A stretch of DNA of 64,000 bases from Pseudonocardia hydrocarbonoxydans (GTDB lineage Bacteria; Actinomycetota; Actinomycetes; Mycobacteriales; Pseudonocardiaceae): NCBI RefSeq assembly GCF_006539565.1, contig NZ_BJNG01000025.1, forward strand, positions 1 through 64,000. Direction: 5' to 3'. The translations under genes and the position numbers were made by a program. Shown piece after piece: positions 3,286 to 53,067 of the stretch. The notes under the pieces were generated by a model. That model was given only the letters and a program-made list of their open reading frames with translations, did no database searches and was not told where the DNA came from. Position 1 is the first letter of the stretch. Each line of letters starts with the position of its first letter.

Positions 3286-4404
3286 ATGCGGACGATCGCC
3301 CTCGACGGCTCCCCCGGCGGCGTCGACGCGCTGGTCGACGCCCTCGCCGCCGCGCTCGACGGCGGGCCCGCCGTCCTGCCGCACACCGGTCCGGCACCGG
3401 CGACGCCCGGGCCCCCGCCCGCGACCGCCGTCGTCATCGCGACGTCCGGCTCCACCGGCCGGCCGCGGCACGTCGCGCTGACGGCGGCCGCGCTGCGGGC
3501 GTCGGCAGGCGCCACCGCCGCCCGGCTCGGCGGTCCCGCCCGCTGGCTGCTGGCGCTGCCGGCCGAGCACGTCGCCGGGGTGCAGGTGATCGTGCGGGCA
3601 CTGCTGGCCGGGGCCCCGCCCGCGGTGCAGGACCTGCGCCCGGGCTTCCGCGCCGACGCCTTCGCCGCCGTCACCGACGGTCTGGGCCCCGGCCCGCGGC
3701 ACACCAGCCTGGTCCCCACCCAGCTGCTGCGCCTGCTCGACGCCGGCGGTCCCGCCCTCGACGCGCTGCGCTCCTACCGCGCGGTGCTCGTCGGCGGCGC
3801 GGCCCTGGACGCCGACCTGCGCCGCCGCGCGCTCGACGCGGGCGTCGCCGTCGTCACCACCTACGGCATGAGCGAGACGGCGGGGGGGTGCGTCTACGAC
3901 GGGGTGCCGCTCGACGGCGTCACGGTCGATCTCGAGGCCGACGGCCGCATCGTGCTCGGCGGGCCGACGCTGGCCACCGGCTACCTCGGCGGGCCCCCGT
4001 TCGGCGGGCGGTTCCGCACCGGCGACCTCGGCCGTCTCGTCGGCGGGCGGCTGGAGGTGCTGGGCCGGGCCGACGACGTGATCGTCACCGGCGGGGAGAA
4101 CGTGGCCCCCGCGGCCGTCGAGCGGGTGCTGGTCGCGCAGCCCGGGGTGCGCGCGGCGTGCGTCGTCGGGATCCCCGACGTGCGGTGGGGGCAGGTCGTC
4201 GCGGCCGCCGTCGTGCCGGGGCCGGGCCGCCCCGGCGACGACGGGCTGCGCGACGCCGTGCGCGCGGCGCTCGGCCGGGCCGCGGTGCCGCGCCGGATCG
4301 TCGACGTGGCGGAGATCCCGGTGCGGGGGATCGGCAAGCCCGATCGTGCGGCGGTGACCCGACTCGTCACGGTGACGGGCGGCCTGGAGCCCCCGAGCGG
4401 GTGA
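3286..4404 (+). CDS. menE: o-Succinylbenzoate-CoA ligase
   Basis: 372 aa, short for an ANL-superfamily adenylate-forming enzyme but normal for actinobacterial MenE. It activates o-succinylbenzoate to its CoA ester, the substrate for MenB. Motifs in order: the P-loop-like IATSGSTGRPRHV near residue 50, YGMSETAGG (A5), TGDLGRLVGGRLEVLGRADD (A7/A8), GGENVAPAAVE and the C-terminal GIGKPDRAA containing the catalytic lysine. It lies 250 bp after menB on the same strand. The ATG start directly precedes a conserved-looking N-terminus. Confidence 0.93.
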   Translation: MRTIALDGSPGGVDALVDALAAALDGGPAVLPHTGPAPATPGPPPATAVVIATSGSTGRPRHVALTAAALRASAGATAARLGGPARWLLALPAEHVAGVQVIVRALLAGAPPAVQDLRPGFRADAFAAVTDGLGPGPRHTSLVPTQLLRLLDAGGPALDALRSYRAVLVGGAALDADLRRRALDAGVAVVTTYGMSETAGGCVYDGVPLDGVTVDLEADGRIVLGGPTLATGYLGGPPFGGRFRTGDLGRLVGGRLEVLGRADDVIVTGGENVAPAAVERVLVAQPGVRAACVVGIPDVRWGQVVAAAVVPGPGRPGDDGLRDAVRAALGRAAVPRRIVDVAEIPVRGIGKPDRAAVTRLVTVTGGLEPPSG

Positions 4405-4533
4405 CGGATTGCGCCATCACATCAGGTCGCTCACTCTGCGTTGATTGACCACTACTCCCTCATCCGGTCTGCTGCGCCAGCAGGAGCAACACAGGCACCA
4501 GCAGTCACAGAAACCACACGGGGAGTTCTCAGT

Positions 4534-5997
4534 ATGCGGATGAGGTTGCGCACCGCGACCCTGCTGGCCGTCGTCGGCGCGGTCGCGCTCGGCACGGCCG
4601 CACCGGCCGCCGCCACCGAGACCGGCACGGCGTCCTGGAACCCCGACCTCGTCGCCGGGGAGAGCGCGGGCGTGGTGGTCGCCGACGGCACCGCGCGGCT
4701 CGACCGCTCGGGCACCCACCTGCTCCCCGCCGACGACGACGGCGCGCCCGTCCCGACCGGCCTGCTCACGTTGCCCGCACAGACCCTCGACACGCCGACC
4801 GACCGCGTCGGCACCGCCGTCGACGGCGACCTGCCCGAGGGCAGCACCGCCACGGTTGACGTCCGGGGGCTCCGCGCCTCGGGCGGATGGACGGAATGGA
4901 TACCCGCGACGTCCGGCACGGCGACGTTGCCCGAGACGACCTCGCAGGTGCAGACCCGCCTCGTGCTGACCGGCGAGCCGGCCACGGAGCCGGCCGTCCG
5001 GGGGGTGACGGTCACCGCCCTTCCAGCGGCGGCGCGCACCGAGGCAGTGGTGGAGTCGGCGGCGCTGAACTACCGCGTGTTCGCCACCCGCGAGGGGCTC
5101 GTCGGCGGCACCACCGCGAACGGCCACGTGATCGCCGAGCGCGACCAGTTCGTCGCCCTCCCCTCCCGTCGCGCACTGTCGCCCCGCGGCACCAGCGACT
5201 ACTCCGTCAAGGTGTGTGCGCCCAACGGACGCTGCGCGTTCGCCCCCGTCTGGGACGTGGGCCCGTGGAACACCCGCGACGACTACTGGAACCCCGCGGA
5301 TCAGCGCCAGGAGTGGAAGGACCTCCCGCAGGGCCTCCCGCAGGCCCAGGCCGCGTACGCCGACGGCTACAACGGCGGCCGTGACCAGTACGGCCGCACC
5401 CCCTCCAACCCCGCAGGCATCGACCTCGGCGACGGCCTGTTCTGGGACGCGCTCGGCCTGACCGACAACTCCTGGGTCACCGTCGACTACCTGTGGACCG
5501 GCTCCGTCCGTCTGTCGCTGGTGAGCGCCGAGGAGCCGATCGACGTCCTGTCCGCACCCGACGCCGCCGCCGACGTCGTGGGCGTGGCAGCGGAGAGCGC
5601 CGCCGTGCCGGTGGAGTGCGCCCTCACCACGGACGCGGCCACCTGGCTGCGGATCGGGACCGACCAGTACATCGACGCCGACGTCGTGTCCGACGCCGAG
5701 GGGGTCGCCGCGTGCGACACCGCCCCCGCCGACGCTGCCGGCCCCACCGACACGGCCGGCCCCACCGACACGGCCGGCCCCACCGACGCCGCCGGCCCCA
5801 CCAGCGCGACCGATCCCGGCGACGAAGCGACCGGCGACGCAGCGACGGGCGACGCCCCCGCGGCCGGGACCCCCTCGTCCGGTACATCCACGTCCGACGC
5901 CCCCACCGGCTCGGAGAGCCGCGCGAGCAACAGCCCCGCAACCACCGACCCGACCGGCTCCCCCGCACCGACCGCGGAACCCACCTCCCCGCAGTGA
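4534..5997 (+). CDS. Secreted protein with beta-barrel-like core and SH3-like region
   Basis: 487 aa. The ATG at 4534 has GGGGAG eight bases upstream. A Sec signal peptide covers about residues 1-28, with cleavage likely after AAPAAA. A central region (NYRVFATREGLVGG ... DYSVKVCAPNGRCAF ... VWDVGPWNTRDDYW) resembles a widespread actinobacterial extracellular domain of double-psi-barrel type, with a Cys pair in VCAPNGRC. It is followed by an SH3b-like stretch with two further cysteines. The tail of about 90 residues is Thr/Pro/Ala-rich and begins with four AGPTDT-like hexapeptides. Likely cell-wall-associated; enzymatic activity unknown. Confidence 0.8.
   Translation: MRMRLRTATLLAVVGAVALGTAAPAAATETGTASWNPDLVAGESAGVVVADGTARLDRSGTHLLPADDDGAPVPTGLLTLPAQTLDTPTDRVGTAVDGDLPEGSTATVDVRGLRASGGWTEWIPATSGTATLPETTSQVQTRLVLTGEPATEPAVRGVTVTALPAAARTEAVVESAALNYRVFATREGLVGGTTANGHVIAERDQFVALPSRRALSPRGTSDYSVKVCAPNGRCAFAPVWDVGPWNTRDDYWNPADQRQEWKDLPQGLPQAQAAYADGYNGGRDQYGRTPSNPAGIDLGDGLFWDALGLTDNSWVTVDYLWTGSVRLSLVSAEEPIDVLSAPDAAADVVGVAAESAAVPVECALTTDAATWLRIGTDQYIDADVVSDAEGVAACDTAPADAAGPTDTAGPTDTAGPTDAAGPTSATDPGDEATGDAATGDAPAAGTPSSGTSTSDAPTGSESRASNSPATTDPTGSPAPTAEPTSPQ
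5737..5808 (+). repeat. 18-bp in-frame tandem repeat (four units)
   Basis: Four copies of an 18-base unit starting GCCGGCCCCACCGAC encode AGPTDT, AGPTDT, AGPTDA and AGPTSA in the low-complexity tail of the secreted protein. The copy number is likely variable between strains. Confidence 0.85.
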
Positions 5998-6058
5998 TCG
6001 TTCCGAGGTGGGCATCGCGGCGGTTCGAACGACCACCACCCCCACCTCGGAACGATCA
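5995..6058. terminator. 18-bp-arm inverted repeat beginning at the stop codon
   Basis: TGATCGTTCCGAGGTGGG (5995-6012) pairs perfectly with CCCACCTCGGAACGATCA (6041-6058) around a 28-base loop. The left arm starts with the TGA stop of the secreted-protein gene. It probably separates this gene from menA. No U-tract follows, as is common for actinobacterial terminators. Confidence 0.7.
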
Positions 6059-6109
6059 CCGGAGGTGCCGACCACCCACTCCGAGGACCGGGCCGGATAG
6101 CGTTCCGGT

Positions 6110-6991
6110 GTGGCCACGCTGAACCAGTGGGTGCAGGGCGCCCGCCCGCGCACCCTGCCGACCGCCGTCTCCCCGGTCGTGGTCGGGACGGGCGCCGCGA
6201 TCGGGGCCGGGACCGTCGCGCCGGGGCGGGCGCTGCTCGCCCTGCTCGTGGCGGTGGCGCTGGTGGTCGGGGTGAACTATGCCAACGACTACTCCGACGG
6301 CATCCGCGGCACCGACGACGACCGGGTCGGCCCGCTGCGGCTGGTCGGGTCGAAGCTGGCCGAGGCCTCGGCCGTCCGCTCCGTGGCCTTCGGATGCTTC
6401 GTCGTGGCCGGGCTGGCCGGGCTCACGCTGGTCTCGCTCGCGCAGCAGTGGTGGCTGATCGCGGTCGGGGCGCTGTGCATCGCGGGCGCCTGGTTCTACA
6501 CCGGCGGCTCGCGGCCCTACGGCTACGCCGGCCTCGGCGAGGTGGCCGTCTTCGTGTTCTTCGGGCCCGTCGCGGTGCTCGGCACGGTCGTCACGCAGAG
6601 CGGCCCGCCGAGCCCGCTCGCCGTCATCGGGGCCGTGGGGGTCGGGCTGCTGGCCTGCGCGCTGCTCGTCGCCAACAACCTGCGCGACATCCCCACTGAC
6701 ACCGCCTCGGGCAAGCGGACCCTCGCGGTCCTGCTCGGCGACGCCGACACCCGCCGCCTCTACGTCGCGCTGGTCGCGGTCCCGTTCGTGCTCTCCGCGC
6801 TGGCCGGGCTGCGCAGCTGGCCGATGCTGCTGGCTCTGCTGGCGCTGCCGCTCGCGGTGCCGCCCGCCCGTCAGGTACTGGGCGGGGCGGACGGCCGCGC
6901 GCTCGTCCGCGTGCTGGGGGCGACGGGGCTGCTGCTGCTGGCGTGGTCGGTGCTGACCGGCGTCGGTACCGCGCTCGGCGGCCTGCGCTGA
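6110..6991 (+). CDS. menA: 1,4-dihydroxy-2-naphthoate polyprenyltransferase
   Basis: 293 aa integral membrane UbiA-family prenyltransferase. It attaches the polyprenyl chain to dihydroxynaphthoate, giving demethylmenaquinone. The first aspartate-rich motif is NYANDYSDGIRGTD (about residues 56-69) and the second is NNLRDIPTDTASGKRT (about 190-205). About eight hydrophobic segments are present. The start is GTG at 6110 (MATLNQWVQGARPRTLP), the typical N-terminus of the family. It is isolated from menB/menE by the secreted-protein gene and a strong inverted repeat, so it probably has its own promoter. Confidence 0.95.
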   Translation: MATLNQWVQGARPRTLPTAVSPVVVGTGAAIGAGTVAPGRALLALLVAVALVVGVNYANDYSDGIRGTDDDRVGPLRLVGSKLAEASAVRSVAFGCFVVAGLAGLTLVSLAQQWWLIAVGALCIAGAWFYTGGSRPYGYAGLGEVAVFVFFGPVAVLGTVVTQSGPPSPLAVIGAVGVGLLACALLVANNLRDIPTDTASGKRTLAVLLGDADTRRLYVALVAVPFVLSALAGLRSWPMLLALLALPLAVPPARQVLGGADGRALVRVLGATGLLLLAWSVLTGVGTALGGLR

Positions 6992-6996
6992 CGCCG

Positions 6997-7272
6997 CTAC
7001 CGGTCCTCCCCGCGCAGCCGCGAGCGCAGCGCCTCGCGTTCCACCGACCGCCGCCGCGACGACTCGGCGAGCGCCGCGTCGAGGCGGGAGCGCAGGCCGC
7101 GGAACAGCACCATCGACAGCGGCAGTGCCACGATCAACGCCACCAGCAGCGCCACGACGACCGGCACCCCCGCCAGCATCAACAGGGCGGCGACGACGGC
7201 GAGCAGACCCGAACGCGCGAGCGTGTAGAGCCCCACTGCGGACAACAGGCCCGGGGCGGTCGGAGAGGTCAT
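6997..7272 (-). CDS. DUF4229-type small membrane protein
   Basis: 91 aa with two hydrophobic helices (GLYTLARSGLLAVVAALLML and VVVALLVALIVALPLSMVLF) and a charged, arginine-rich tail. This matches the actinobacterial DUF4229 pattern found next to menA. It is convergent with menA, with only five bases between the stops. Function unknown. Confidence 0.8.
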   Translation of the reverse strand: MTSPTAPGLLSAVGLYTLARSGLLAVVAALLMLAGVPVVVALLVALIVALPLSMVLFRGLRSRLDAALAESSRRRSVEREALRSRLRGEDR

Positions 7273-7663
7273 ACCCCAAGCCTACGACCCCTCGGGCCGG
7301 CCGGACCGTGAAGCTGACACGACAGTAAGGCCATGACCGCTACCGACCTCGTCATGCGCGACGGCGGCCGGTCCTGGCGACGTGATCGGGTCATCGCGCT
7401 CGGTGCGATCGTCGCCCCCACCATACGTCGTGGCCCATTTCGGCAACGCCACCGACTTCACACCGGACTTCAGGACCTGGGCCACCGGGTATCTCTCGGG
7501 CGGCCTGATTCGTGCTCGGCCTGATCGTCCTGGCACGTCGATGGAGCGGGAACCGGCCCGCCCCTGGTAGTCGGGGCGTGACGGTCGGTGGCGCGTGCCG
7601 TGCCGCCCAGCAGGGTCGCACGGGCCGGGCGGGTTCGCCGGCCGGGCGACTGCCGAGCGGCGG
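7273..7663. other. Intergenic, no supported gene
   Basis: 391 bases between the DUF4229 gene and mntH. Several short frames are open on both strands, including a minus-strand one containing PVAQVLKSGVKSVALPKWATTYGG. None has a convincing start, ribosome binding site or recognised domain. It may include remnants of mobile DNA, given the IS debris nearby. Confidence 0.5.
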
Positions 7664-8950
7664 TCAGGCGCCGGTGGCGGTCTGCCAGATCAGGAACACG
7701 TTGAGCCCGATGATCAGCGCGGCGGCCAGCCCGGCGACGGTGGTGGTGAGGCGGTGGTTGACCAGCTCCGCCATGACGTCGCGGCGGCGGGTGAGCAGCA
7801 CCAGCGGGACCAGCGCGAACGGGATGCCGAAGGACAGCACGACCTGGGACAGCACCAGCGCGCGGGTGGGGTCGATCCCGATGCCCAGCACGACCAGCGC
7901 GGGGGCGAGGGTGAGTGCCCGGCGCAGCAGCAGCGGGATCTGGCGCCGGATGAAGCCCTGCATGACCACCTGGCCCGCGTAGGTCCCCACCCCGGATGAG
8001 GCGAAACCGGACGCGAGCAGGGCGATCGCGAACGCGAACGCGGCCGGCTGGTCGAGGACCCGGGCGAGGCCGGCGTAGGCGCCGTCGAGGGTGTCGGTGT
8101 CGGGGATGTCGGTGCCGAAGAACAGGGTGGCCGCGATGACCAGCATGGCAGCGTTGACCAGCCCGGCCAGCCCCATCCCGACGACGACGTCGGTCTGCTG
8201 GCGGCGCAGCAGGAACTTGCGGTCTTGCGCGGTGTCGGCGCGGATCCGGGTCTGGGTGAGCGCGGAGTGCAGGTAGACCACGTGCGGCATCACCGTGGCG
8301 CCGATGATGCCGGTGGCCAGCAGCAGGCTGTCGGTGCCGTCGAACCGGGGGACGAGCCCGGCGACGGCGTCGGCCGGGACGATCTCGATGCGGACCACGG
8401 TGCTCAGGAAGCCGAGCAGGATGACGAAGAAGAGCCCGGCGATGGCCCGCTCGAACGGCCGGAAGCCCCGGCTCTGCAGCGCCAGCAGCGCGAACGCGAC
8501 GATCCCGGTGATCACTCCGCCGGTGAACAGCGGGATCCCGAACAGCAGATTCAGCGCGATCGCGCCGCCGATCACCTCGGCCAGGTCGGTGGCGATGGCA
8601 ACGATCTCGGCCTGCACCCACATCCCGCGCGACACCGGGCGGGGGAACCGGTCACGGCACATCTCCGGCAGGTTGCGGCCGGTGGCCAGACCCAGCTTGG
8701 CCGAGAGCGACTGGATGAGCATCGCCAGCAGGTTGGCGCCGACGATCACCCACAGCAGCAGATAGCCGAACTGGGCGCCGGCGGAGAAGTTGGTGGCGAA
8801 GTTGCCCGGGTCGACGTAGGCGATCGCAGCGACGATCGCCGGTCCGAAGAACAACAACCGGCCCCGCCACGGACCGCGGGCCCGGATCTCGGCGATCGTG
8901 AGAGTGGTATCACCGGTTGTCGGGCGCTGGGTGGAGTCGGTAGTTGTCAT
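7664..8950 (-). CDS. mntH: Nramp-family divalent metal (Mn2+) transporter
   Basis: 428 aa, eleven predicted membrane segments, full family length. The hallmark metal-site motif DPGN is present in YVDPGNFATNF (helix 1). The helix 6 site is ATVMPHVVYLHS, matching the MPH signature. A conserved acidic helix reads IVAIATDLAEVIGGAIALN. It imports Mn2+ or other divalent metals coupled to protons. The ATG at 8948-8950 is 9 bases from an imperfect dyad resembling a DtxR/MntR-type operator, so metal-dependent repression is likely. Confidence 0.94.
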   Translation of the reverse strand: MTTTDSTQRPTTGDTTLTIAEIRARGPWRGRLLFFGPAIVAAIAYVDPGNFATNFSAGAQFGYLLLWVIVGANLLAMLIQSLSAKLGLATGRNLPEMCRDRFPRPVSRGMWVQAEIVAIATDLAEVIGGAIALNLLFGIPLFTGGVITGIVAFALLALQSRGFRPFERAIAGLFFVILLGFLSTVVRIEIVPADAVAGLVPRFDGTDSLLLATGIIGATVMPHVVYLHSALTQTRIRADTAQDRKFLLRRQQTDVVVGMGLAGLVNAAMLVIAATLFFGTDIPDTDTLDGAYAGLARVLDQPAAFAFAIALLASGFASSGVGTYAGQVVMQGFIRRQIPLLLRRALTLAPALVVLGIGIDPTRALVLSQVVLSFGIPFALVPLVLLTRRRDVMAELVNHRLTTTVAGLAAALIIGLNVFLIWQTATGA

Positions 8951-45231: not shown

Positions 45232-45244
45232 CCTCGAACTTGTA
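45232..45244. repeat. Left attachment-site copy (att core)
   Basis: CCTCGAACTTGTA, identical to 52368-52380. On the minus strand the surrounding bases read GGC TAC AAG TTC GAG GGG TGA, i.e. the last codons (GYKFEG stop) of a RegX3-type gene with nothing upstream. This is the displaced original 3' end of regX3 left by integration. Confidence 0.8.
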
Positions 45245-45408
45245 GCCACGCCTCCCCCGCCCTGACCAGCCAGAACGCCGTACGAACGGCGGTGACCTGG
45301 GAGAACGAGCGGTGAGCACGGGTGGCGAGGTGTGACGAGGGGTCCCCCGGTTGGGGACTTCTGCGGGACCGGCGGGACTCACGTGGGACTGCTCGCGCCC
45401 ATCAGAAC

Positions 45409-45445
45409 GGCCCGGACCGGTGCTCGAACACCGGTGGCCCGGGCC
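45409..45445 (+). promoter_or_regulatory. Leader hairpin before the left recombinase operon
   Basis: GGCCCGGACCGGTG pairs with CACCGGT and CCGGGCC (three-base bulge) around CTCGAA, ending 24 bases before the ATG at 45470. It could be an attenuator or a terminator for transcription entering from the att side. Confidence 0.5.
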
Positions 45446-45469
45446 TTGATCGCCACCAGGAGGCGACCC

Positions 45470-45553
45470 ATGAACGAGGATCTCACCAGCCACGCGGCCG
45501 GGCGGCCGCACCTCGACTTCGACGCGACGCCCGCGTCGGGGAGCACTTCGTGA
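45470..45553 (+). CDS. 27-aa leader-like ORF overlapping the recombinase start
   Basis: MNEDLTSHAAGRPHLDFD plus ATPASGSTS. The ATG has one of the best ribosome binding sites in the element (AGGAGG-CGACCC-ATG). Its stop overlaps the GTG of the recombinase in the form GTGA, so the small ORF may deliver ribosomes to the recombinase by coupling. Alternatively, it marks an old frameshift at the recombinase N-terminus. No domain is recognisable. Confidence 0.5.
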   Translation: MNEDLTSHAAGRPHLDFDATPASGSTS

Positions 45554-46500
45554 CCGCGGCGGACCGCGTGCCGCCGCAGCACCGCGTGCCGGTGCACCGC
45601 AGAGCCAAGGTGCACCGGCTGCCGGCGATCGTCGACAACCTGCCGGGCGCGGTGTACCGCACGCAGCCCACGCGCTACCTCATCGAGCACCTGGACTGGA
45701 TGCGCCGGGCCGGGCGCGCGGACTCGACGATCAAGGCGCGCACGATGGCGCTGCACTTCCTCGCGCTGTGGCTGCACGGTGACCCGTTCGACGCGACGAG
45801 CCAGCAGCTCGACGCGTGGCAGTCGACGCTGAAGCCGTTGATCAAGATGCGCCATCAGACCTCGCTGATCCGGCCCTACTACCGCTTCGTGCAGGACCGC
45901 GGCTACCGCCTCGACAACCCGGCCGCGCTGCTGCCGCTCCCGCCTGCGCCGCGCCGGCTCCCTCGGCCGATCTCGGAGGAGCGGCTGATGGCCGCGGTCG
46001 CCGCGGCGCGGCCGCGGGTGCTGCGGTGGCTGCTGCTCGCTGGCTGGTCGGGTCTGCGGGCGGCCGAGATCGCCGGCCTGACCGTCGAGTCGTTCGCGGC
46101 GGACGGCACTGGCCAGGTGTGGGCCCGAGTGATGGGCAAGGGCTCGAAGGAGCGCGAGGTCCCGGTGCCCGCGTGGTGCTGGGAGCTGATCGAGCCGGCC
46201 CTGCCCGCGTCGGGGCCGTGCTGGGCGCGCGAGAAGGGCACCGGCCCGGTGACGGCGCAGCACGTGAGCCAGCTGTGCAACGACTACCTGCGCTCGCAGG
46301 GGATGTCGGACACCTTCCACGCGCTGCGCCACCGCGCGGCGACGGAGACCCTGCACGCCACCGGTGGCGACCTGCGCGCGGTGCAGGACCTGCTAGGGCA
46401 CTCGAACCTGGGGACGCTGCACGTCTACACCCGGGTGCGGCCGGGGACGCTTGCCGGCGCGGTGGCCGCGCTGGGCCGGCCCACGGACGAGCTGCGGTGA
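45550..46500 (+). CDS. Tyrosine recombinase (XerC/D-like), left end of element
   Basis: 316 aa. Core-binding domain around residues 40-125 (TRYLIEHLDWMRRAGRADST). The catalytic set is complete: R170 (SGLRAAEI), K177-region MGKGSKE, H257-R260 (HALR), H284 (LLGHSN) and nucleophile Y293 (HVYTRV). It cuts and rejoins DNA by a covalent phosphotyrosine; its site is unknown. The start GTG at 45550 is coupled to the 27-aa ORF. It is the second recombinase of the element and may resolve multimers or act with the other in integration. Confidence 0.88.
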   Translation: MTAADRVPPQHRVPVHRRAKVHRLPAIVDNLPGAVYRTQPTRYLIEHLDWMRRAGRADSTIKARTMALHFLALWLHGDPFDATSQQLDAWQSTLKPLIKMRHQTSLIRPYYRFVQDRGYRLDNPAALLPLPPAPRRLPRPISEERLMAAVAAARPRVLRWLLLAGWSGLRAAEIAGLTVESFAADGTGQVWARVMGKGSKEREVPVPAWCWELIEPALPASGPCWAREKGTGPVTAQHVSQLCNDYLRSQGMSDTFHALRHRAATETLHATGGDLRAVQDLLGHSNLGTLHVYTRVRPGTLAGAVAALGRPTDELR

Positions 46501-46655
46501 GCGCGGCCGTGGCGTGGTGGTGCATGGCGGCGGGCAGCGCCGGCGTGGTGCTCGGGCTGCTCGCGGGCCGGTGGCGGTGGGCCGGGCGAGCCCGGCACCG
46601 TGGCGGGCTGCAGCTGCGTCCGCCCCGGCGGCGCCGGCGACGAGGCGCGCGCTGA
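46497..46655 (+). CDS. Small one-span membrane peptide
   Basis: 52 aa: a hydrophobic N-terminus (AAVAWWCMAAGSAGVVLGLLAG), then a very basic tail ending RPPRRRRRRGAR. The GTG at 46497 overlaps the recombinase stop in the GTGA form, supporting real translation. Function unknown; a small phage membrane protein is possible. Confidence 0.55.
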   Translation: MSAAVAWWCMAAGSAGVVLGLLAGRWRWAGRARHRGGLQLRPPRRRRRRGAR

Positions 46656-46795
46656 GTAGCCGTCGAGGATTCAGCGGTGCGCCGGGCCGCGTTCTGGCAT
46701 GATCCGGCTGGTAGCGCAGCGGTTCGAGTGATCTCGCCGGGTGCGCAGGGCCCCGCGCTCGTGTGATCACGCCGGGGGTTGATCATCCCCTTCAT

Positions 46796-46838
46796 GCCGC
46801 CCGGCTGGTCCTCCCTGGCTCGGAGCCAGCCGGGCGGC
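46796..46838 (+). promoter_or_regulatory. Perfect 13-bp-arm hairpin before the capsid gene
   Basis: GCCGCCCGGCTGG (46796-46808) and CCAGCCGGGCGGC (46826-46838) pair perfectly around a 17-base loop, 29 bases before the capsid ATG. It may end upstream transcription or shape the capsid mRNA leader. The remaining sequence from 46656 to 46795 shows no gene. Confidence 0.55.
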
Positions 46839-46867
46839 CCCTGACACACCGTGAGGACCCCTTCCCG

Positions 46868-48061
46868 ATGAACCCGTTCCTGCACGCCGCTCTGACGCGC
46901 TACAACTCCGCGCGCGACGACACGACCGAGATCCAGAACCGCGCCAAGACCGAGGAGCGCGACCTCACCAAGGAGGAGGTCGCGACGATCGAGGGGCACG
47001 TCGCCGCGATGAACCAGATGGGCCCGCTGATCGAGCAGTTCGCCCACGAGGAGAAGCGGACGCGCGCCGTCGCCGACGCGGCCGCGGCGATCGACGCCGG
47101 CAACCGCGGCGAGCTCGTCGACGAGCTGGTGCCCGCGCTGGTCCCGGGCCGCACCCAGCTCAGCGAGATGCTGCGCTCGATCGACGAGCAGCGCACGCAC
47201 CGGTGGTCCGTCCAGCCCGAGCGCAGGGGCGTCAGCCTGGCCGGCGGCGACGCCGAGCACCGGGCGCTGGTGACGACCTCGACGACCGGTGCGCCGGTCG
47301 CGGCCGGCGGCGGCACGCCGCTGCGCGAGCCGCGCCGGATCGCGACCGCGGCCGGCCTGCCGGTGCAGCGGGTCAGCGGCGTCGAGGGCGTGACGTGGCC
47401 GGTGTTCGGGTCGGCCGACGCCGCGGACATCGTCGCCGAGGGCGCGACGAAGCCCGAGTACGACAACATCACCAGCGCCACCGCGACGCCGCAGATGATC
47501 GCGATGTGGACCGACTTCACCCGGCAGGTCGGGATGACCCTGCCGAACTTCGAGCGCCGGCTGCAGGCCAAGCTCAGCGCCCGCGTGGCCCGCCGTGAGG
47601 ACGTCCTGATGGTCGCCCGGGTGCTGGCCACCACCGGGATCCAGACCTACGCCGCCGGCGCGGACCAGCCGTTCGCGGACTCGCTGCTCCAGGCCGCAGC
47701 GCTGGTGCTGGCCTCCGACGTCGCGGCCGCGCCGAACCTGGCCGTCGTGCACCCCACTGACGTCGTGGCGATCTTCGGCGGCTCGGCCACCGGGACGGCC
47801 GGGGAGACCCCGCAGAGCGAGCTGCGCCTAGACCTGCACGGCATGACGGTCTACCCGTCCACCGCGGTCACGGCCGGCACGGCGATCGTCGGGGCGTGGC
47901 CGGCGGCCGCGGAGCTGATCGTCGGCCTGCCGCCCACCGTGTTCGTCGACGCCGTGTCCGGGCTGAAGACGAACAAGATCACGGTCCTGCTGGAGGAGGC
48001 CGTCACGCTGGGCGTGACCGAGCCCGAGGGGTTCGTCAGCGTGGACTTCGTCCCGGCGTAG
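46868..48061 (+). CDS. HK97-fold phage major capsid protein
   Basis: 397 aa. The N-terminal 90 residues are charged and helical (NRAKTEERDLTKEEVATIEGH), like the delta/scaffold domain of HK97-type capsids. The main fold follows: GTPLREPRRIATAAGLPVQ, WPVFGSADAADIVAEGATKPEYD, MWTDFTRQVGMTLPNFER, FADSLLQAAALVLASD, NLAVVHPTDVVAIFGGSA and a C-terminal LLEEAVTLGVTEPEGFVSVDF. ATG 46868 follows a GTGAGGACCCC leader. Encapsulins share the fold but normally lack the delta-like domain and do not sit with recombinases. No protease, portal or terminase neighbours it. Confidence 0.85.
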   Translation: MNPFLHAALTRYNSARDDTTEIQNRAKTEERDLTKEEVATIEGHVAAMNQMGPLIEQFAHEEKRTRAVADAAAAIDAGNRGELVDELVPALVPGRTQLSEMLRSIDEQRTHRWSVQPERRGVSLAGGDAEHRALVTTSTTGAPVAAGGGTPLREPRRIATAAGLPVQRVSGVEGVTWPVFGSADAADIVAEGATKPEYDNITSATATPQMIAMWTDFTRQVGMTLPNFERRLQAKLSARVARREDVLMVARVLATTGIQTYAAGADQPFADSLLQAAALVLASDVAAAPNLAVVHPTDVVAIFGGSATGTAGETPQSELRLDLHGMTVYPSTAVTAGTAIVGAWPAAAELIVGLPPTVFVDAVSGLKTNKITVLLEEAVTLGVTEPEGFVSVDFVPA

Positions 48062-48075
48062 CCCCGGCCCCTCAC

Positions 48076-48105
48076 GCGGCCCCCTGTCGTCCGGCAGGGG
48101 GCCGC
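48076..48105. terminator. Bidirectional terminator after capsid gene
   Basis: GCGGCCCCCTG and CAGGGGGCCGC form a perfect 11-bp stem with the loop TCGTCCGG, 14 bases past the capsid stop and 16 bases before the stop of the convergent zinc-finger gene. It probably ends both transcripts. Confidence 0.8.
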
Positions 48106-48121
48106 GCTGCGTCCTGGCCAG

Positions 48122-48310
48122 CTAGGCACGCCGGCGGCGGCCAGCGGCGCGCTGACGGGCCCGGCGGGCATCGAGGTGCGCGGCGTCGTAGGCGCGGCTG
48201 CTCGCGGCGTCGCAGAGCTTGCAGGCGCTCTTGTGGCCCGAGGCCTTCGACCGGTCGACGGCGAACGCCTCGCGCGGCTTGGTCGTCGAGCAGGTGGGGC
48301 ACGTGGGCAC
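48122..48310 (-). CDS. Zinc-finger mini-protein (endonuclease VII N-terminus-like)
   Basis: 62 aa: VPTCPTCSTTKPREAFAVD and GHKSACKLCDAASSRAYDAAH give a four-Cys finger (CPTC ... CKLC). Spacing and the KPxxxF and RAYDAAH elements resemble the N-terminal finger of phage recombination endonuclease VII/HNH proteins. The nuclease domain that normally follows is absent; instead a basic tail RRARQRAAGRRRRA ends the protein. GTG 48310 has GGAG six bases upstream. Possibly a DNA-binding accessory or a truncated nuclease. Confidence 0.6.
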   Translation of the reverse strand: MPTCPTCSTTKPREAFAVDRSKASGHKSACKLCDAASSRAYDAAHLDARRARQRAAGRRRRA

Positions 48311-48686
48311 GGTCGGCTCCGATCGGTTGTTGATCTTACTCTGAGCGCCGTTGTCACCCAGAGCGATGGTCACGGCGGGTAGTTGAACGCTCGGAGTACT
48401 CCGAGTCCCCGACGCCGGGGGTCGCCGACACCCTCGGCGATCGCGGCGGGCCGCCAGCGGCCAGCAGGGCCGGCCCGGTGCTGGCCGCGCTCAGCGGCCG
48501 CAGGACGGCCGTCCCCGGTGCTCCGGAGAGCGCCCGGGGCCGCTCAGCGGCGCGCTGAACGCCAGCAGCGCGGCCGCCGGACGCCGGCCGGGTCGCCGTC
48601 CCCGGCTGGGCCGGGGGCTCGGAGGGAGAGATCCATACGGGCCTAGCTGTCCGGCCCTGCCGGGCCCCAGCAAAAACCGGGGTCGG
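48311..48686. other. Palindrome-rich non-coding region of the element
   Basis: 376 bases with no supported gene. It holds a perfect 16-bp palindrome CTCGGAGTACTCCGAG (48391-48406), a CCCCGACGCCGGGG stem just after it and two copies of CGCTCAGCGG (48488 and 48541). A hairpin-like GGCCCTGCCGGGCC lies near 48653. It may contain the element's replication origin or a control region, but nothing proves this. Confidence 0.45.
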
Positions 48687-48842
48687 TCACGCATCGTGAC
48701 CGCCGAGCCGGCGGCGCTGCTGCTCGGCGAGCAGCTCGGCCGCGGGCCGGTACTTCAGCGGTGAGTCCGCCGGCGGCTGCTCGTCGACGTCGACGAGCGC
48801 CTGGTCCTCGACGAGCGGCTGCGCCGTCTCGGTCTCGGTCAC
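48687..48842 (-). CDS. Small acidic-then-basic protein of the element
   Basis: 51 aa: an acidic N-terminal half (VTETETAQPLVEDQALVDVD) and a basic end (AAELLAEQQRRRLGGHDA). GTG 48842 overlaps the preceding stop as GTGA, supporting coupled translation. No family recognised. Confidence 0.5.
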   Translation of the reverse strand: MTETETAQPLVEDQALVDVDEQPPADSPLKYRPAAELLAEQQRRRLGGHDA

Positions 48843-49246
48843 GCGCCCGTACCGCCCTCGGTCAGCCACTCGGTGGGCACGTGGTCGGGCGCCGGCTGCG
48901 CCTGGGCCAGCAGGTCACGGGCGGTGGCGCGCGGGTCGACGGGCCGCCCGTGCGCATCCACGAGGTCCCGGACGCGGACCCGGCACAGCTCGACAACGCC
49001 GAGGCTGGTGGACAGCCACACGATCGCGAACGTGGACCGGGTGTCCTTGCGGCCGCTCCTGGTCAGCTCGACGCGCAGCTCGATGCTCAGGCGCTCCTCG
49101 ATCGTCTCGTACCACTGGGCGAGCTGCTCGCGCACCGCCCGGCCGTGCTCGTCGTCGACGACGCCGGCGAGGATGCGCCGGGTCTGGGCGAGCAGGGCGT
49201 CCTCGATGTGCTCGGTCAGCGTGCGGCCGGCCGTTGGTGCGGTCAT
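48839..49246 (-). CDS. Hypothetical protein of the element
   Basis: 135 aa, largely helical in appearance (LTEHIEDALLAQTRRILAG, AVREQLAQWYETIEERLSIEL), with a central beta-like stretch STFAIVWLSTSLGVVELCRVRVRDLV. No recognised domain. It sits in a chain of four overlapping minus-strand genes running away from the operator region, so it is probably an early function of the element. ATG 49246 overlaps the previous stop by four bases. Confidence 0.6.
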   Translation of the reverse strand: MTAPTAGRTLTEHIEDALLAQTRRILAGVVDDEHGRAVREQLAQWYETIEERLSIELRVELTRSGRKDTRSTFAIVWLSTSLGVVELCRVRVRDLVDAHGRPVDPRATARDLLAQAQPAPDHVPTEWLTEGGTGA

Positions 49247-49467
49247 GACAGGTTCCTTCCGGGTGGGTCGTCGGTGGGTCGTGCTACGAGCGCCTTTAGC
49301 TCGTCCTTCGTGGGCGGCCTGGGCGGCCGTTCAGCCAGCCAGGGACGGCAGTGTGGGCACGGGCGCGGCTGCGACGCGTTGCGGTCGAGCCAGCCCCGCC
49401 GGCAGGTATGCCCGTGCTCGTCGCCGGCGTCGTCCTCGATCGGCTCGCCGGTCCGGTCACGACGCAC
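49243..49467 (-). CDS. Small zinc-ribbon-like protein of the element
   Basis: 74 aa. GHTCRRGWLDRNASQPRPCPHCRPWL has a Cys-x-many-CPHC pattern with a nearby His, suggesting a bound metal. The C-terminus is polar (PTKDELKALVARPTDDP). The GTG start lies within the last codons of the upstream winged-helix gene (11-base overlap). Such short CxxC proteins are common beside replication genes in actinobacterial integrative elements. Confidence 0.5.
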   Translation of the reverse strand: MRRDRTGEPIEDDAGDEHGHTCRRGWLDRNASQPRPCPHCRPWLAERPPRPPTKDELKALVARPTDDPPGRNLS

Positions 49468-50329
49468 GGGCCACCGCGCTTGGGTGACAGCGCGGGCACG
49501 GGTCTCCGGAGCCGGACGTGACGCCGGGCGGGTAGGTGACGCGTGCGGTCGGTGCGTCCAGCGGGCCCGCGTTGCACTGACCGCACGGAGGCGGCAGGTG
49601 CGCGCGAGCCGGGCTCGCCATCTTCTCCGCCTTCAGCAGGCGCTCGATGACGTCCTTCCGCGTGCCCTTGCGCACGAGCGACGCCATGAGCGCCTCGACG
49701 CTGTTCGGCGGCCTTGGGCCCGTCTCGATGCTCAGCAGGGCCGCTCGCACCCGATCGGCCGACCACACGTCCGGGAGGTCGATCAGCTCGACGACGTCGT
49801 CCACGATCGCCTCGCGGCCGCGCCACGGCTCGCGCGCGCCGGCGCGCGCGGCTGGAGGTGGTGATGAAGGAGGAGGTACTGAGGAGGTGGGCTCCCGGTT
49901 TCCGGTGGCCTCGGGCACCGGAAACCGGTGGGTCGCCTCCTCCGTTTCCGGTGGTACCCCCTGAATCCGGTACCTACCGATTTCCGGTGGTATCCCGGTG
50001 AAGCCTGCAGCTGTGCCGACGTCGGCCGGCACGGTCAGGACGTACTCCCGCGCTCGGTCGCGATACGACACGGCTTCTCCGACCCGCAGGAACAGTCGTG
50101 CGTCCTCCAGCTTGCGCAGGTGGCCCCGAACGGCCTCCTCGTTGCCGAAGCCGGCGTGCTCCTTGATCTTCTTCTGGCCCGGGAAGATCGCCGAGCCGTC
50201 TGGATCGCCGTAGGCCGCCACGAAGAACCCGAAGAGGAACGTCCCGGCCGGCACCAGGCGTCGGCCCAGCAGCGCCCGACGCCACTCGAACAGGCCGAGG
50301 CGCATCAGGTCGGCGGGCAGCTCGTACAT
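49457..50329 (-). CDS. Winged-helix replication-like protein of the element
   Basis: 290 aa. Residues 1-105 look like a winged helix (PADLMRLGLFEWRRALLGRR, IKEHAGFGNEEAVRGHLRKLEDARLFLRVG), the type found in prophage and plasmid replication initiators. A proline-rich linker follows (SSVPPPSSPPPAAR), then a helical region, and a C-terminal four-Cys zinc site (CGQCNAGP ... CPRCHP). Proposed role: replication initiation or copy control of the excised element. ATG 50329; the excisionase-like gene lies six bases upstream. Confidence 0.65.
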   Translation of the reverse strand: MYELPADLMRLGLFEWRRALLGRRLVPAGTFLFGFFVAAYGDPDGSAIFPGQKKIKEHAGFGNEEAVRGHLRKLEDARLFLRVGEAVSYRDRAREYVLTVPADVGTAAGFTGIPPEIGRYRIQGVPPETEEATHRFPVPEATGNREPTSSVPPPSSPPPAARAGAREPWRGREAIVDDVVELIDLPDVWSADRVRAALLSIETGPRPPNSVEALMASLVRKGTRKDVIERLLKAEKMASPARAHLPPPCGQCNAGPLDAPTARVTYPPGVTSGSGDPCPRCHPSAVARAS

Positions 50330-50335
50330 GGCAGA

Positions 50336-50545
50336 TCAGGCCGCCGAGCCGTCGCCGGCGGCGCGCTGCGCAGCCTGGCGCTGCTCATCGAGCCAGGCGT
50401 CGAGGGCACTCAGGTCGTATGCGACCTTCCGGCCGAGCCTGAAGAACGCAGGGCCCTGCCTGCGGTACCGCCAGTGCTTCAAGGTCTCGACGGGGACGCC
50501 GAGGTACTCGGCGACCTCTGCGGATCCCAGGATCTTGCGCTCCAC
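50336..50545 (-). CDS. Excisionase/AlpA-like helix-turn-helix protein
   Basis: 69 aa: ILGSAEVAEYLGVPVETLKHWRYRRQGPAFFRLGRKVAYDLSALDAWL in pieces, a MerR/Xis-type winged HTH with the W-R-Y-R-x-Q-G-P-x-F block typical of integrative-element excisionases. It likely directs the recombinase toward excision. The GTG at 50545 is the first gene leftward from the operator region. It reads in the same direction as the replication-like gene. Confidence 0.85.
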   Translation of the reverse strand: MERKILGSAEVAEYLGVPVETLKHWRYRRQGPAFFRLGRKVAYDLSALDAWLDEQRQAAQRAAGDGSAA

Positions 50546-50594
50546 GCGTCCTCCTCGTGCTGATGCGGTCTCGGTGAGCCAGTTCAGCGGAACC

Positions 50595-50649
50595 GACTCA
50601 CGGCGCGGAACGTACTCCGCCGTGAGTCACCCTCGCAACACCGACTCAC
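50595..50649. promoter_or_regulatory. Operator-like repeats between divergent xis and repressor-like genes
   Basis: GACTCACGGCG (50595-50605) and its exact inverse CGCCGTGAGTC (50618-50628) flank a 12-base spacer. A third half-site GACTCAC lies at 50643-50649. All are within the 122-base space between two divergent genes, as expected for a lysogeny-type switch. Confidence 0.65.
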
Positions 50650-50667
50650 CCGTGGTTAGGTAGGCGG

Positions 50668-51162
50668 GTGCCGAAGAGGACCTGGATTACCCCGGAGGGC
50701 GAGCACATCTCGTCCGCGATGCCGTCGACCGGGTACCTGCCGGACGCGGGCACCATCGAGCTGACCGACTGGGACGGCTACTTCGTCCAGCTCTCGGTCG
50801 AACTGGTCAACGGCCGCTACCGGTGCAACGAGCTGCGCGTGCGCGAGGGCGAGGCGGGCAAGGAGATCACCGGCGAGGCGATCCGCAACCTGTCCCTCTC
50901 GCGCATGATCCGCGAGGGCGTTCTGCACGTGCGCCGGTTCGTCAGGCCGCCCGAGGCGCCGACGGACGTCGACGAGGACCTGCGCAAGCTCCAGTGGGTG
51001 GCGGAGGTCTACCGGTTCGCCTACGCGGTGGGCGACCCACCCAAGCAGGCAGTGGCGGAGGGACTGCAGGTGTCGCCTGCGACGGCGGGCCGCTGGATCG
51101 CGAGGTCGCGCAAGGCTGGTCTGCTAGGGCCGGCTGAGGGCCCCGGACGAGCGGGAGGCTGA
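50668..51162 (+). CDS. Repressor-like helix-turn-helix protein
   Basis: 164 aa. The N-terminal 110 residues have no recognised fold (a beta-rich stretch TIELTDWDGYFVQLSVELV, then a helical one). The C-terminal part PPKQAVAEGLQVSPATAGRWIARSRKAGLL is a clear helix-turn-helix. It is transcribed away from the excisionase and directly into the integrase (two bases between stop and start), with the operator repeats just upstream. This suggests an autoregulated control protein. GTG 50668. Confidence 0.65.
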   Translation: MPKRTWITPEGEHISSAMPSTGYLPDAGTIELTDWDGYFVQLSVELVNGRYRCNELRVREGEAGKEITGEAIRNLSLSRMIREGVLHVRRFVRPPEAPTDVDEDLRKLQWVAEVYRFAYAVGDPPKQAVAEGLQVSPATAGRWIARSRKAGLLGPAEGPGRAGG

Positions 51163-51164
51163 GG

Positions 51165-52319
51165 GTGGGAAGCGTAGCCAAGCGCCCGAACGGCCGGTGG
51201 CGCGCTCGGTACCGGGCACCGGACGGCGCGTGGCGGGCGAAGCACTTCACGCGCAAGGTCGACGCGGAGCGGTTCGTCGCGACGATCGAGACGGCAAAGC
51301 TGCGGGGCGCCTACATCGACCCGGACGACCGGACGACCGTCGCGGAGTACGCGCGCCGGTGGGCGGCGGCGCGGCCGTACCGGGCCACCACGGCGCGGCG
51401 GGTGGAGGCGCAGATCCGGTGCCACCTGGAGGGCAAGGCGCTGGGCGGGCGCCGGCTCGCGGCCGTCCTGCCCTCGGATGTGCAGGCCTGGTCGGCCGAG
51501 CTCGCGCAGACGATGGCGCCGGCGACGGTGCAGCTGCAGGTGAACCTGCTGAAGGCGGTCTACGCCAGCGCCGTGCTCGATCGGCTCGTCGCGTCCTCGC
51601 CCGTCGTGCGGATCGCTCTGCCGCGCGCTGAGCGCGACCGCGTCGTGCCCCTGACGATCGACCAGGTGCAGGCGTTGGCCAGGGAGGTGCCGGAGCGGTG
51701 CTCGGCGATGGTCGTCGTGCAGGCCGCGCTAGGCCTGCGCGTCGGGGAGCTGCTCGCCCTGCGCGACCAGGACGTGAACTTCCTCGGTCGCAGCGTCCGC
51801 ATCGAGCACCAGCTCGAGCGCGGCACGCGGCGGCGGGTGCCGCCGAAGACACCGCGATCGCGACGAGCCGTGCCGCTCCCCCAGGTCGCCGCTGAGGCGC
51901 TGTCGGAGCACATGCGGAACTGGCCGGCGCTCGACGACGGCACGCTGTTCTACGGCGCCAGCGGGCGGCCCTACGACCACGCCTACTACGGGACCAAGGT
52001 GTTCACCGCGGCCGCGCGACGTCTCGCCGGCGCGAAGGGCTCGACGTTCCCGCCGGAGGTCACGACCCACGACCTCCGCCACCACTACGCCAGCGTGCTG
52101 CTCGCCGGCGGTGAGAGCGTCGTCGCCGTCGCCGAGCGCCTGGGCCACGACAACGCGGGCATGGTCCTGCGGGTGTACGGGCACCTGATGCCCGACTCCG
52201 AGGACCACACGCGCCGCGTCATCGACGCCGCCTGGGCACCCCTCGACGGCGCTGCTCGTGTGTCCACGGGTGGCAGCGGCAGGGACGGATCAGGGACACC
52301 CGCGGGGGTGCGGCCATGA
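51165..52319 (+). CDS. Tyrosine-recombinase integrase adjacent to right att site
   Basis: 384 aa phage-type integrase. An AP2-like arm-binding N-terminus (SVAKRPNGRWRARYRAPDG) is followed by a SAM-like core-binding domain near 60-140. The catalytic domain has R192 (LGLRVGELLAL), H302-R305 (HDLRHHYAS), H328 (RLGHDN) and Y338 (RVYGH). It lies 48 bases from the right att repeat, as expected for the gene that performed integration into regX3. The GTG start follows the upstream stop by two bases. Confidence 0.93.
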   Translation: MGSVAKRPNGRWRARYRAPDGAWRAKHFTRKVDAERFVATIETAKLRGAYIDPDDRTTVAEYARRWAAARPYRATTARRVEAQIRCHLEGKALGGRRLAAVLPSDVQAWSAELAQTMAPATVQLQVNLLKAVYASAVLDRLVASSPVVRIALPRAERDRVVPLTIDQVQALAREVPERCSAMVVVQAALGLRVGELLALRDQDVNFLGRSVRIEHQLERGTRRRVPPKTPRSRRAVPLPQVAAEALSEHMRNWPALDDGTLFYGASGRPYDHAYYGTKVFTAAARRLAGAKGSTFPPEVTTHDLRHHYASVLLAGGESVVAVAERLGHDNAGMVLRVYGHLMPDSEDHTRRVIDAAWAPLDGAARVSTGGSGRDGSGTPAGVRP

Positions 52320-52362
52320 CCTAGACCCCTGACCTGCGTGAATGCCGCCAGATCCGCCCCGA

Positions 52363-53067
52363 TCAGGCCTCGAACTTGTATCCCAGGCCACGCACCGTCA
52401 CCAGGTGCTTCGGCGCGCCGGGGTCGGTCTCGACCTTGCTGCGCAGGCGCTTGACGTGCACGTCGAGGGTCTTGGTGTCGCCCACGTAGTCGGCGCCCCA
52501 GACGCGGTCGATGAGCTGGCCGCGGGTGAGCACCCGGCCGACGTTGCGCAGCAGGTACTCCAGCAGGTCGAACTCCTTGAGCGGCAGCGCCACGTCGGTG
52601 CCCCCGACGGAGACGACGTGCCGCTCCACGTCCATCCGCACCGGCCCGGCCTCGAGCACGGCGCCGCTGCCCCAGCCGCCCGCCCCGTCGAGCTCGGGGC
52701 CGCCCTCCCCGCCGCGGCGCAGGACGGCGCGCACGCGCGCGATCAGCTCGCGGGCGGAGTAGGGCTTGGTGACGTAGTCGTCGGCCCCCAGCTCCAGGCC
52801 CACGACCTTGTCGATCTCGCTGTCCCGCGCCGTCACCATGATCACCGGGACGGCGGAGCGGGTGCGCAGCGCCTTGCAGACGTCGGTGCCGCTCATCCCG
52901 GGGAGCATGAGGTCGAGCAGCACGATGTCGGCGCCGTTGCGGTCGAACTCCTCCAGCGCGTCCTGGCCGGTGGCGGCCACGGCCGTCGTGAAGCCCTCCT
53001 TGCGCAGCAGGAACGCGAGCGGGTCGGCGAAGGACTCCTCGTCCTCGACGATCAGCACCCTGGTCAT
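52363..53067 (-). CDS. regX3: Response regulator RegX3 (OmpR/PhoB type)
   Basis: 234 aa. Receiver domain with phospho-acceptor D52 (IVLLDLMLPGMSG) and K101 (YVTKPYSARE). The C-terminal winged helix has EFDLLEYLLRNVGRVLTRGQLIDRVWG and ends TVRGLGYKFEA. It controls phosphate-limitation genes in mycobacteria and relatives. Its start overlaps the senX3 stop by four bases. The last codons are a hybrid: an element is integrated at its 3' end and supplies the final Ala codon and stop in place of the former Gly. Confidence 0.96.
   Translation of the reverse strand: MTRVLIVEDEESFADPLAFLLRKEGFTTAVAATGQDALEEFDRNGADIVLLDLMLPGMSGTDVCKALRTRSAVPVIMVTARDSEIDKVVGLELGADDYVTKPYSARELIARVRAVLRRGGEGGPELDGAGGWGSGAVLEAGPVRMDVERHVVSVGGTDVALPLKEFDLLEYLLRNVGRVLTRGQLIDRVWGADYVGDTKTLDVHVKRLRSKVETDPGAPKHLVTVRGLGYKFEA
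52368..52380. repeat. Right attachment-site copy (att core) within regX3
   Basis: CCTCGAACTTGTA lies inside the last codons of the intact regX3, which now ends GGA TAC AAG TTC GAG GCC TGA. The bases after the core, including the GCC codon and TGA, come from the element. Confidence 0.8.

What the first reader, a model, noticed from the sequence alone, without database searches (positions are those of the whole stretch)
45232..52380. Small integrative element carrying a lone HK97-type major capsid gene
Seen in the sequence: 13-bp direct repeats, two tyrosine recombinases, an excisionase-like HTH, operator repeats, a replication-like winged helix and one capsid gene, with no portal, terminase, protease or tail gene in 7.1 kb. 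Known satellites carry capsid-size redirectors or a full capsid-packaging set; a capsid alone is unusual. Possible readings: a satellite that supplies its own shell and borrows packaging from a helper phage, a shell used for something else, or a reduced prophage. The capsid, recombinase and control genes all look intact, which argues against random decay.
Basis: partly seen in the sequence, partly recalled or inferred. Interest (0 to 1): 0.85.

Follow-up and report, generated by a model that had tools for sequence, protein, structure and literature searches.

The report
Tiny phage satellite with lone capsid
A 7.1-kilobase DNA element inserted in a Pseudonocardia-type bacterium carries one virus shell gene and no other recognisable virus-building gene; the front end of that shell protein resembles the assembly domain of viruses dormant in the same and related genomes, so the element likely builds a small shell and is predicted to borrow the remaining virus parts from such a virus.

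Summary
Window 45232-52380 is a discrete element: 13-bp repeats at the 3' end of a response-regulator gene, empty sites in 7 of 29 congener loci, two tyrosine recombinases, one HK97-family capsid gene, and no recognised portal, large terminase, protease or tail gene. A Prauserella element with a related capsid has nearly the same size (7,091 vs 7,136 bp) in another gene.

The capsid looks chimeric. Against nine local siphophage capsids its N-terminal scaffold domain is more alike (median 30%) than its shell (23%) in 9 of 9 pairs, whereas within elements the shell is the more alike part in 35 of 36 pairs. The same genome holds a siphoprophage of that family with terminase, portal, protease and tail genes. 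I read it as a satellite that makes its own small shell and is predicted to recruit a helper's remaining parts through the scaffold domain.

Induction, helper use and packaging are untested; no shared packaging site was found.

The parts
45232..45244 (.). attL, 13-bp direct repeat CCTCGAACTTGTA; the left copy keeps an alternative 3' end of the response-regulator gene (GYKFEG-stop)
45550..46500 (+). tyrosine recombinase 1 (XerC/D-like, 316 aa; start uncertain, frame open from 45322)
   Evidence: PF00589 2.5e-17, TIGR02224 9.7e-30 but below its cut-off; 57% identical homologue beside a different capsid in L129
46868..48061 (+). HK97-family major capsid protein, 397 aa
46868..47107 (+). N-terminal scaffold (delta-like) domain of the capsid, residues 1-80, two long predicted helices, related to local siphophage capsids
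48076..48105 (+). GC-rich hairpin just after the capsid gene (terminator-like; no T-run)
   Evidence: read from the sequence
48122..48373 (-). small Endo VII/HNH-like zinc-finger protein, 83 aa
   Evidence: phrog_2340 5e-7, phrog_1035 1.1e-6
48687..48869 (-). possible 60-aa ORF, no family
48839..49246 (-). conserved companion protein, 135 aa, function unknown; homologue in the L011 element
   Evidence: 49% identity over 108 aa; 3 hits among 5.8 billion proteins, one of them itself; AF2 pLDDT 77, no PDB match at E<=0.001
49243..49467 (-). 74-aa protein, related in L014 (36% over 69 aa) and L129 (72% over 53 aa)
49457..50329 (-). 290-aa predicted replication protein (winged-helix reading weak), C-terminal part related in L129
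   Evidence: HTH_12 0.033 below cut-off; 36% over 102 aa in L129; no other homologue
49892..49990 (.). iteron-like repeats TTTCCGGTGG (three direct, one inverted) inside the 290-aa gene; possible origin
50336..50545 (-). AlpA/excisionase-type HTH protein, 69 aa
   Evidence: PF12728 2.4e-11, phrog_66 4e-10
50587..50649 (.). operator-like repeats (ACCGACTCAC twice) between divergent genes
50668..51162 (+). 164-aa predicted DNA-binding regulator
   Evidence: weak HTH hits only, HTH_17 0.038
51165..52319 (+). tyrosine recombinase 2, likely element integrase next to attR, 384 aa
   Evidence: PF00589 4.9e-18, phrog_1 2.4e-59; 70% identical homologue downstream of the same gene in G293 (L053)
52368..52380 (.). 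attR, 13-bp direct repeat inside the intact response-regulator gene 52363-53067

Best explanation
This 7.1-kb integrated element is likely a phage satellite whose only recognised structural gene joins an HK97-family shell to an N-terminal domain that resembles the scaffold domain of local siphophage capsids, and it is predicted to build its own small shell and use that domain to recruit a helper phage's portal, protease, terminase and tail. Shown here: element boundaries and empty sites, the lone capsid gene, the HK97 family match, scaffold similarity alongside a distant shell, and a siphoprophage of that phage family in the same genome. Inferred: the 384-aa integrase with the HTH protein excises the element; the 290-aa protein starts replication at its own in-gene repeats; the scaffold domain (in HK97 it contacts the portal, PMC10275583) docks a helper portal and is trimmed by the helper protease; the helper terminase fills the head and the helper tail is added. 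Untested: induction, particles, packaging.
For: Discrete element with empty sites (7 of 29). Same-size element (7,091 bp, 31-bp repeats, GDPD gene 3' end) with a related capsid in Prauserella. Related capsids in L011 (Pseudonocardia MAG) and L012 (Phytoactinopolyspora), again with no portal seen in the held stretch. No portal, large terminase, protease or tail family in the window element. HK97 fold predicted. Chimera, median identity of scaffold and shell: element vs phage 32.5% and 23.5% (shell higher in 2 of 81 pairs); phage vs phage 45.6% and 52.0% (24 of 36); element vs element 31.3% and 54.3% (35 of 36). In shuffle z: window vs phages 13.2 and 1.3; phage vs phage 22.0 and 120.5; element vs element 11.0 and 82.1 (z grows with length, so one search is the fair comparison). 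24 of 31 family proteins have scaffold median z >5 and 1 of 31 shell median z >5; 18 of 31 exceed the best of 22 control capsids (9.5). Resident prophage: large terminase (PHROG 9, 1.1e-71), portal (PF04860 1.2e-28), protease (PF04586 5.8e-14), tape measure (PHROG 1272, 9.4e-49), serine integrase. Both genus members with this lone capsid (G000, G1028) hold such a phage capsid, against 6 of the 60 others (Fisher p 0.015). Family proteins with a protease of their own (fused P0026, P0028; separate in L014) lack the phage-like scaffold, which suggests that the shell can stand alone.
Against: No experiment, induction or particle data. No packaging site shared with the resident prophage: longest exact match 15 bp, 19 control stretches 16-18 bp; the best BLASTN match (38 bp, 84%, E 2e-5) lies in the scaffold-domain coding of both capsids. 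The shells are distant, not unrelated: both are PF05065, and some full-length pairs align at 22-28%. Part of the scaffold signal is generic: controls reach 5.9, 6.9 and 9.5. The scaffold tree does not settle direction (p-AU 0.086). The nearest scaffold to the window's is a phage in another genome (G1028, 42% over 90 aa), not the resident one (32% over 72 aa). Hosts of L012, L014 and L023 hold no capsid of this prophage family, and the L012, L014 and L129 capsids do not share its scaffold. G1028 has 9% contamination and its contig is titled MAG, so the p value is soft; it was also computed after the pattern was noticed. 7 kb is small for a T=3 or T=4 head filled once (own arithmetic).
Confidence: 0.5

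Rival explanations
1. Ccm-like capsid redirector: the element's capsid protein does not make a shell alone but co-assembles with the helper's capsid protein (as SaPIbov5 Ccm, which forms the pentamers) and forces small heads.
For: Closest experimentally solved precedent that I found of a lone HK97-type capsid homologue in a satellite, 24% identical to the helper capsid protein, with its own delta domain (PMC8569155, abstract and passages; PMC5052747, passages). Window capsid vs phage capsids is in the same range over full length (22% over 413 aa with G265's), and a shared scaffold domain suits co-assembly.
Against: Relatives carry a protease fused to or beside the capsid (P0026, P0028, L014), which suggests a self-contained shell.
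Confidence: 0.25
2. Interference or decoy: the protein poisons helper assembly by joining through the scaffold domain, protecting the host, without packaging the element.
For: Expression of ccm cut helper titre 1,000- to 10,000-fold (PMC5052747); no packaging site found here.
Against: Integrase, excisionase-like HTH and in-gene repeats point to a mobile, replicating element; a relative (L011) shows a tRNA-3'-end-like, attP-like stretch flanked by element genes on both sides.
Confidence: 0.1
3. Reduced, decaying prophage that has lost portal, terminase and tail.
For: Small size; an actinobacterial survey classed 47% of prophages as remnant (PMC10023795, passages).
Against: No broken gene seen in the element; same-size relative at another site; backbone parts reused with another capsid in L129; shell not that of local phages; no DNA similarity to the resident prophage above control outside 38 bp of scaffold coding.
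Confidence: 0.08
4. Non-viral compartment (encapsulin-like shell) carried by a mobile element.
Confidence: 0.03

Closest known systems
SaPIbov5 Ccm (cos-type SaPI capsid homologue)
   Same: [quoted passage not shown] PMC8569155 (abstract and passages), PMC5052747 (passages).
   Different: Staphylococcus; SaPIbov5 carries the helper's cos site, none found here; Ccm is 355 aa and forms no capsids alone; here some relatives carry their own protease.
Mycobacterium candidate PICIs including phiRv1/phiRv2
   Same: Integrase plus major capsid gene in actinobacterial elements, tyrosine or serine integrases, varied capsids (PMC10654092, passages).
   Different: Some of those carry terminase or scaffold genes (same passages); this shell family and backbone were not compared with them here; activity is undemonstrated there too.
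Capsid-forming PICIs (cf-PICI) and Streptomyces satellites MulchRoom/MiniFlayer
   Different: Those encode portal, connectors and terminases as well (cf-PICI also protease); this one only the capsid.
PICMI
   Same: Minimal integrative satellite with integrase, AlpA-like HTH and replication gene (PMC10803314, passages).
   Different: PICMI encodes no capsid-remodelling gene and its search model requires a DUF3987/DUF5906 primase and Fis; neither was found here.

Membership tests
capsid-forming PICI | capsid, protease, portal, connectors, TerS and TerL all encoded | tested here: not met
   only the capsid found; definition from PMC10690885
Mycobacterium-type candidate PICI | integration machinery plus major capsid gene | tested here: met
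   definition in the methods of PMC10654092
Mycobacterium-type candidate PICI | induced and transduced by a phage | not testable with these tools
   also undemonstrated in PMC10654092
Ccm-type redirecting satellite | lone HK97-type capsid homologue with N-terminal delta domain | tested here: met
   the delta domain is inferred from predicted helices and similarity
Ccm-type redirecting satellite | helper packaging (cos) site in the satellite | tested here: inconclusive
   no shared site above control with the resident prophage; the true helper is unknown
Ccm-type redirecting satellite | changes helper capsid size | not testable with these tools
   needs particles
PICMI | primase DUF3987/DUF5906, AlpA, Fis, no capsid gene | tested here: not met
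   capsid present, no primase or Fis hit in the window element
Encapsulin | shell without viral scaffold domain, with cargo gene | tested here: not met
   scaffold-like domain present; no cargo gene recognised; definition recalled
phage satellite in general | discrete integrated element with own integrase and replication genes, dependent on a helper | tested here: inconclusive
   element, integrase and empty sites met; replication gene inferred; dependence not testable here

The most novel reading that the evidence does not exclude
Actinobacterial satellites carry chimeric capsids: a shell lineage of their own fused to the scaffold domain of the phages they exploit, so that about 80 residues act as the handshake that captures a helper's portal and protease, and the scaffold domain moves between phages and satellites as a module independent of the shell.
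Probability: 0.33. Interest if true: 0.8.

Novelty: new variant of a known kind. Interest (0 to 1): 0.56.

Why it matters
How a satellite with one structural gene gets into virus particles is a minimal case of molecular piracy. Here the capsid itself suggests an answer: own shell, helper-like scaffold. It makes helper use a testable property of one domain. The survey here also suggests that lone-capsid elements are nearly as common as tailed prophages in this genus (11 against 15 of 34 capsid loci), so they may be a large, poorly described class of actinobacterial mobile DNA.

Tried and rejected
Whole-prophage remnant: rejected on shell, DNA and gene content. Shared packaging site with the resident prophage: none above 19 control stretches. 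Capsid in known phages: none at 1e-5; at E<=10, 44 records, of which the 15 listed match residues 156-245 or 184-245 of enterobacterial-type head proteins at E about 1-2. Relatives in IMG/VR: none with A1, A2 or A3, a pattern-based scan of limited reach. Genome contigs with the single protein: none; with A1: 3 loci. Phylum and order surveys with A1 at 1e-30: only the window (1 of 396 and 1 of 397). L011 circularity: no terminal overlap. Scaffold-domain tree: phages not one clade in any of 200 bootstrap trees, but the AU test does not reject one clade (p 0.086). Companion protein: AF2 model with no PDB match at E<=0.001. 290-aa protein: no homologue besides itself at E<=0.001. Defence genes: no PADLOC hit among 6 element proteins. 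The large terminases of L016 and of the resident prophage gave no Pfam hit but clear PHROG hits; my gene caller had missed the resident one, and it was found by similarity. SaPIbov5 Ccm was not among the listed sequence or structure matches, which excludes nothing. Tycheposons: the library search found papers that mention them, not the primary paper; capsid-bearing tycheposons are recalled only. Papers on lone-capsid elements in this genus: none among the rows listed for the terms.

Rows dropped: P0013 (the L011 protein, entered as L011), P0026 and P0028 left out of the scaffold tree, which was built from A1 and so also lacks P0005, P0008, P0010, P0015, P0027 and P0029. One search used 12 element capsids (5 from loci, 7 of the 31 database proteins); its element-element figures, and those, leave out L012, L014 and L023. 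One search used all 31 proteins, the window's own record among them. Of the phages, G122's capsid was not called as an ORF, G187's was used only in the tree, and G212's and the second G260 copy were left out as near-copies. Of the 24 capsid places without a portal within 10 kb, G1030:C2, G212:C21 and G1028:C719 were not fetched; L137, L141 and L144 were left out of the controls, and L101's capsid was not called.
Full report
What is there. The repeats are at 45232-45244 and 52368-52380. They lie at the 3' end of a regX3-like response-regulator gene (52363-53067, minus strand), which now ends GYKFEA-stop; the left copy keeps GYKFEG-stop, like an intact congener gene (L028). A 13-bp repeat alone is weak: 23.8% of 500 random pairs of 800-bp stretches do as well. 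The empty site is the stronger evidence: 7 of 29 other congener loci align through the joined flanks. In many of the others the two flanks are apart; one (G293) has a 70% identical integrase downstream of the same gene.

Relatives. 31 proteins in the 5.8-billion collection match the capsid, its own record included (8,000 candidates scored). None was found in 50,697 phage records at 1e-5 or in IMG/VR by pattern scan. Named hosts with context: a Pseudonocardia MAG contig (L011), Phytoactinopolyspora endophytica (L012) and Prauserella aidingensis (L013/L014). The genus of the window follows from G1028, a same-genus genome that holds the 6,836-base L011 contig. The Prauserella element is bounded by 31-bp repeats at the 3' end of a glycerophosphodiesterase-like gene and is 7,091 bp long, against 7,136 bp here. 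It adds a prohead protease (PF04586 3.3e-11). L011 has the companion (49%), a tyrosine recombinase, two genes that look like a helicase and a primase by eye (no Pfam hit), and a tRNA-3'-end-like stretch at about 2609 flanked on both sides by element genes, which suggests an attP of an excised form. L012 has a serine recombinase. Two database proteins, P0026 and P0028, have the protease fused to the capsid.

The chimera. By identity over residues 1-80 and from 121 on, element and phage capsids have medians of 32.5% and 23.5% (shell higher in 2 of 81 pairs); phages among themselves 45.6% and 52.0% (24 of 36); nine close elements among themselves 31.3% and 54.3% (35 of 36). So within each group the shell tends to be the better-conserved part, while between groups it is the scaffold. 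That fits exchange of the scaffold domain better than unequal rates. Shuffle z-scores say the same. Of all 31 database proteins, 24 have scaffold median z above 5 and 1 has shell median z above 5. Calibration on 22 other capsids of the genus gives scaffold medians from -0.7 to 9.5; 18 of 31 exceed 9.5, and the groups differ (Mann-Whitney 4.9e-6; 0.002 against the 12 controls with long N-termini). One control phage (G1013) has the prophage family's shell (z 95) but a different scaffold (6.9), so the domain also varies independently among phages. The tree of 80 residues cannot give the direction.

The candidate helper. The window's own genome holds a siphoprophage on another contig (C26, about 36.6-56.5 kb) with large terminase, portal, protease, capsid, tape measure and a serine integrase. 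In 62 congeners, 8 have a capsid matching A1 at 1e-8; both genomes with the lone capsid (G000, G1028) also have a phage capsid of this family, against 6 of 60 others (p 0.015). In G1028 that capsid lies on a 7.9-kb contig with protease-, connector- and tape-measure-like genes, judged by order and size. Caveats: G1028 has 9% contamination; G149, G293 and G1032 have no such phage; no common packaging site was found, and the only notable DNA match to the resident prophage is 38 bp at 84% inside the scaffold coding.

How common. In 62 congeners PF05065 rings at 34 places in 27 genomes and the PF04860 portal at 16 places in 15 genomes. 10 capsid places have a portal within 10 kb; an eleventh (G1030:C2) would if its 61-kb contig is circular. 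Four more are tailed phages by long tape-measure-like genes (L140, L142, L143, L146), with portal or terminase PHROG hits in the three that I tested. Of the other 19, 11 have a recombinase within 10 kb and no portal, terminase or tape-measure gene seen: the window, L023, L128-L134, L136 and L139. Recombinases were recognised by Pfam or by similarity. Ten large proteins and capsids were checked in Pfam, and 36 large non-capsid proteins of 12 fetched phages found nothing in these loci by tblastn at 1e-4. Diverged portals are not excluded, and L023 is cut by a contig end 2 kb past its capsid. The remaining 8 (L135, L137, L138, L141, L144, L145, G212:C21, G1028:C719) are truncated, unclear or not fetched. 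L129 in G104 keeps parts of the window's backbone (recombinase 1 at 57%, the 74-aa protein at 72%, the 290-aa protein's C-terminus at 36%) with a capsid outside this family, so the capsid slot looks exchangeable.

Mechanism. In HK97 the scaffold domain surrounds and contacts the portal (PMC10275583, passages). A satellite capsid with a helper-like scaffold could therefore build around a helper portal and be trimmed by its protease. I prefer an own shell to a mixed one because some relatives carry a protease with the capsid. The solved precedent, SaPIbov5 Ccm, forms a mixed shell, and that stays the main rival.

Comparison with what is known. By the definition in PMC10654092 this is a candidate PICI; it is not a cf-PICI or PICMI. 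What is added here is a shell family absent from the phage collections searched, the repeated 7.1-kb size (two bounded elements), and the scaffold-domain chimera.

Noticed in passing
L129 (G104:C108) 3246-8531: Sister element: recombinase 1, 74-aa protein and C-terminal part of the 290-aa protein as in the window, but a capsid outside this family.
   Followed up: partly
P0026, P0028: Prohead protease fused in frame to the same capsid shell family, with no phage-like scaffold domain.
   Followed up: partly
G000 contig C26, about 36.6-56.5 kb (L069, L070): Siphoprophage with serine integrase in the window's genome; its protease protein also carries a DUF305 domain.
   Followed up: partly
regX3 3' end in congeners (L025-L053): The place downstream of the response regulator holds different DNA in many congeners; possible integration hotspot.
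   Followed up: partly
L132, L135, L139: Other small elements with short (about 280-300 aa) capsids, next to primase-like genes and, in L132 and L139, serine recombinases.
   Followed up: partly
window 45550-46500: Second, XerC/D-like recombinase beside the capsid, kept in L129; possible resolution of multimers.
   Followed up: no
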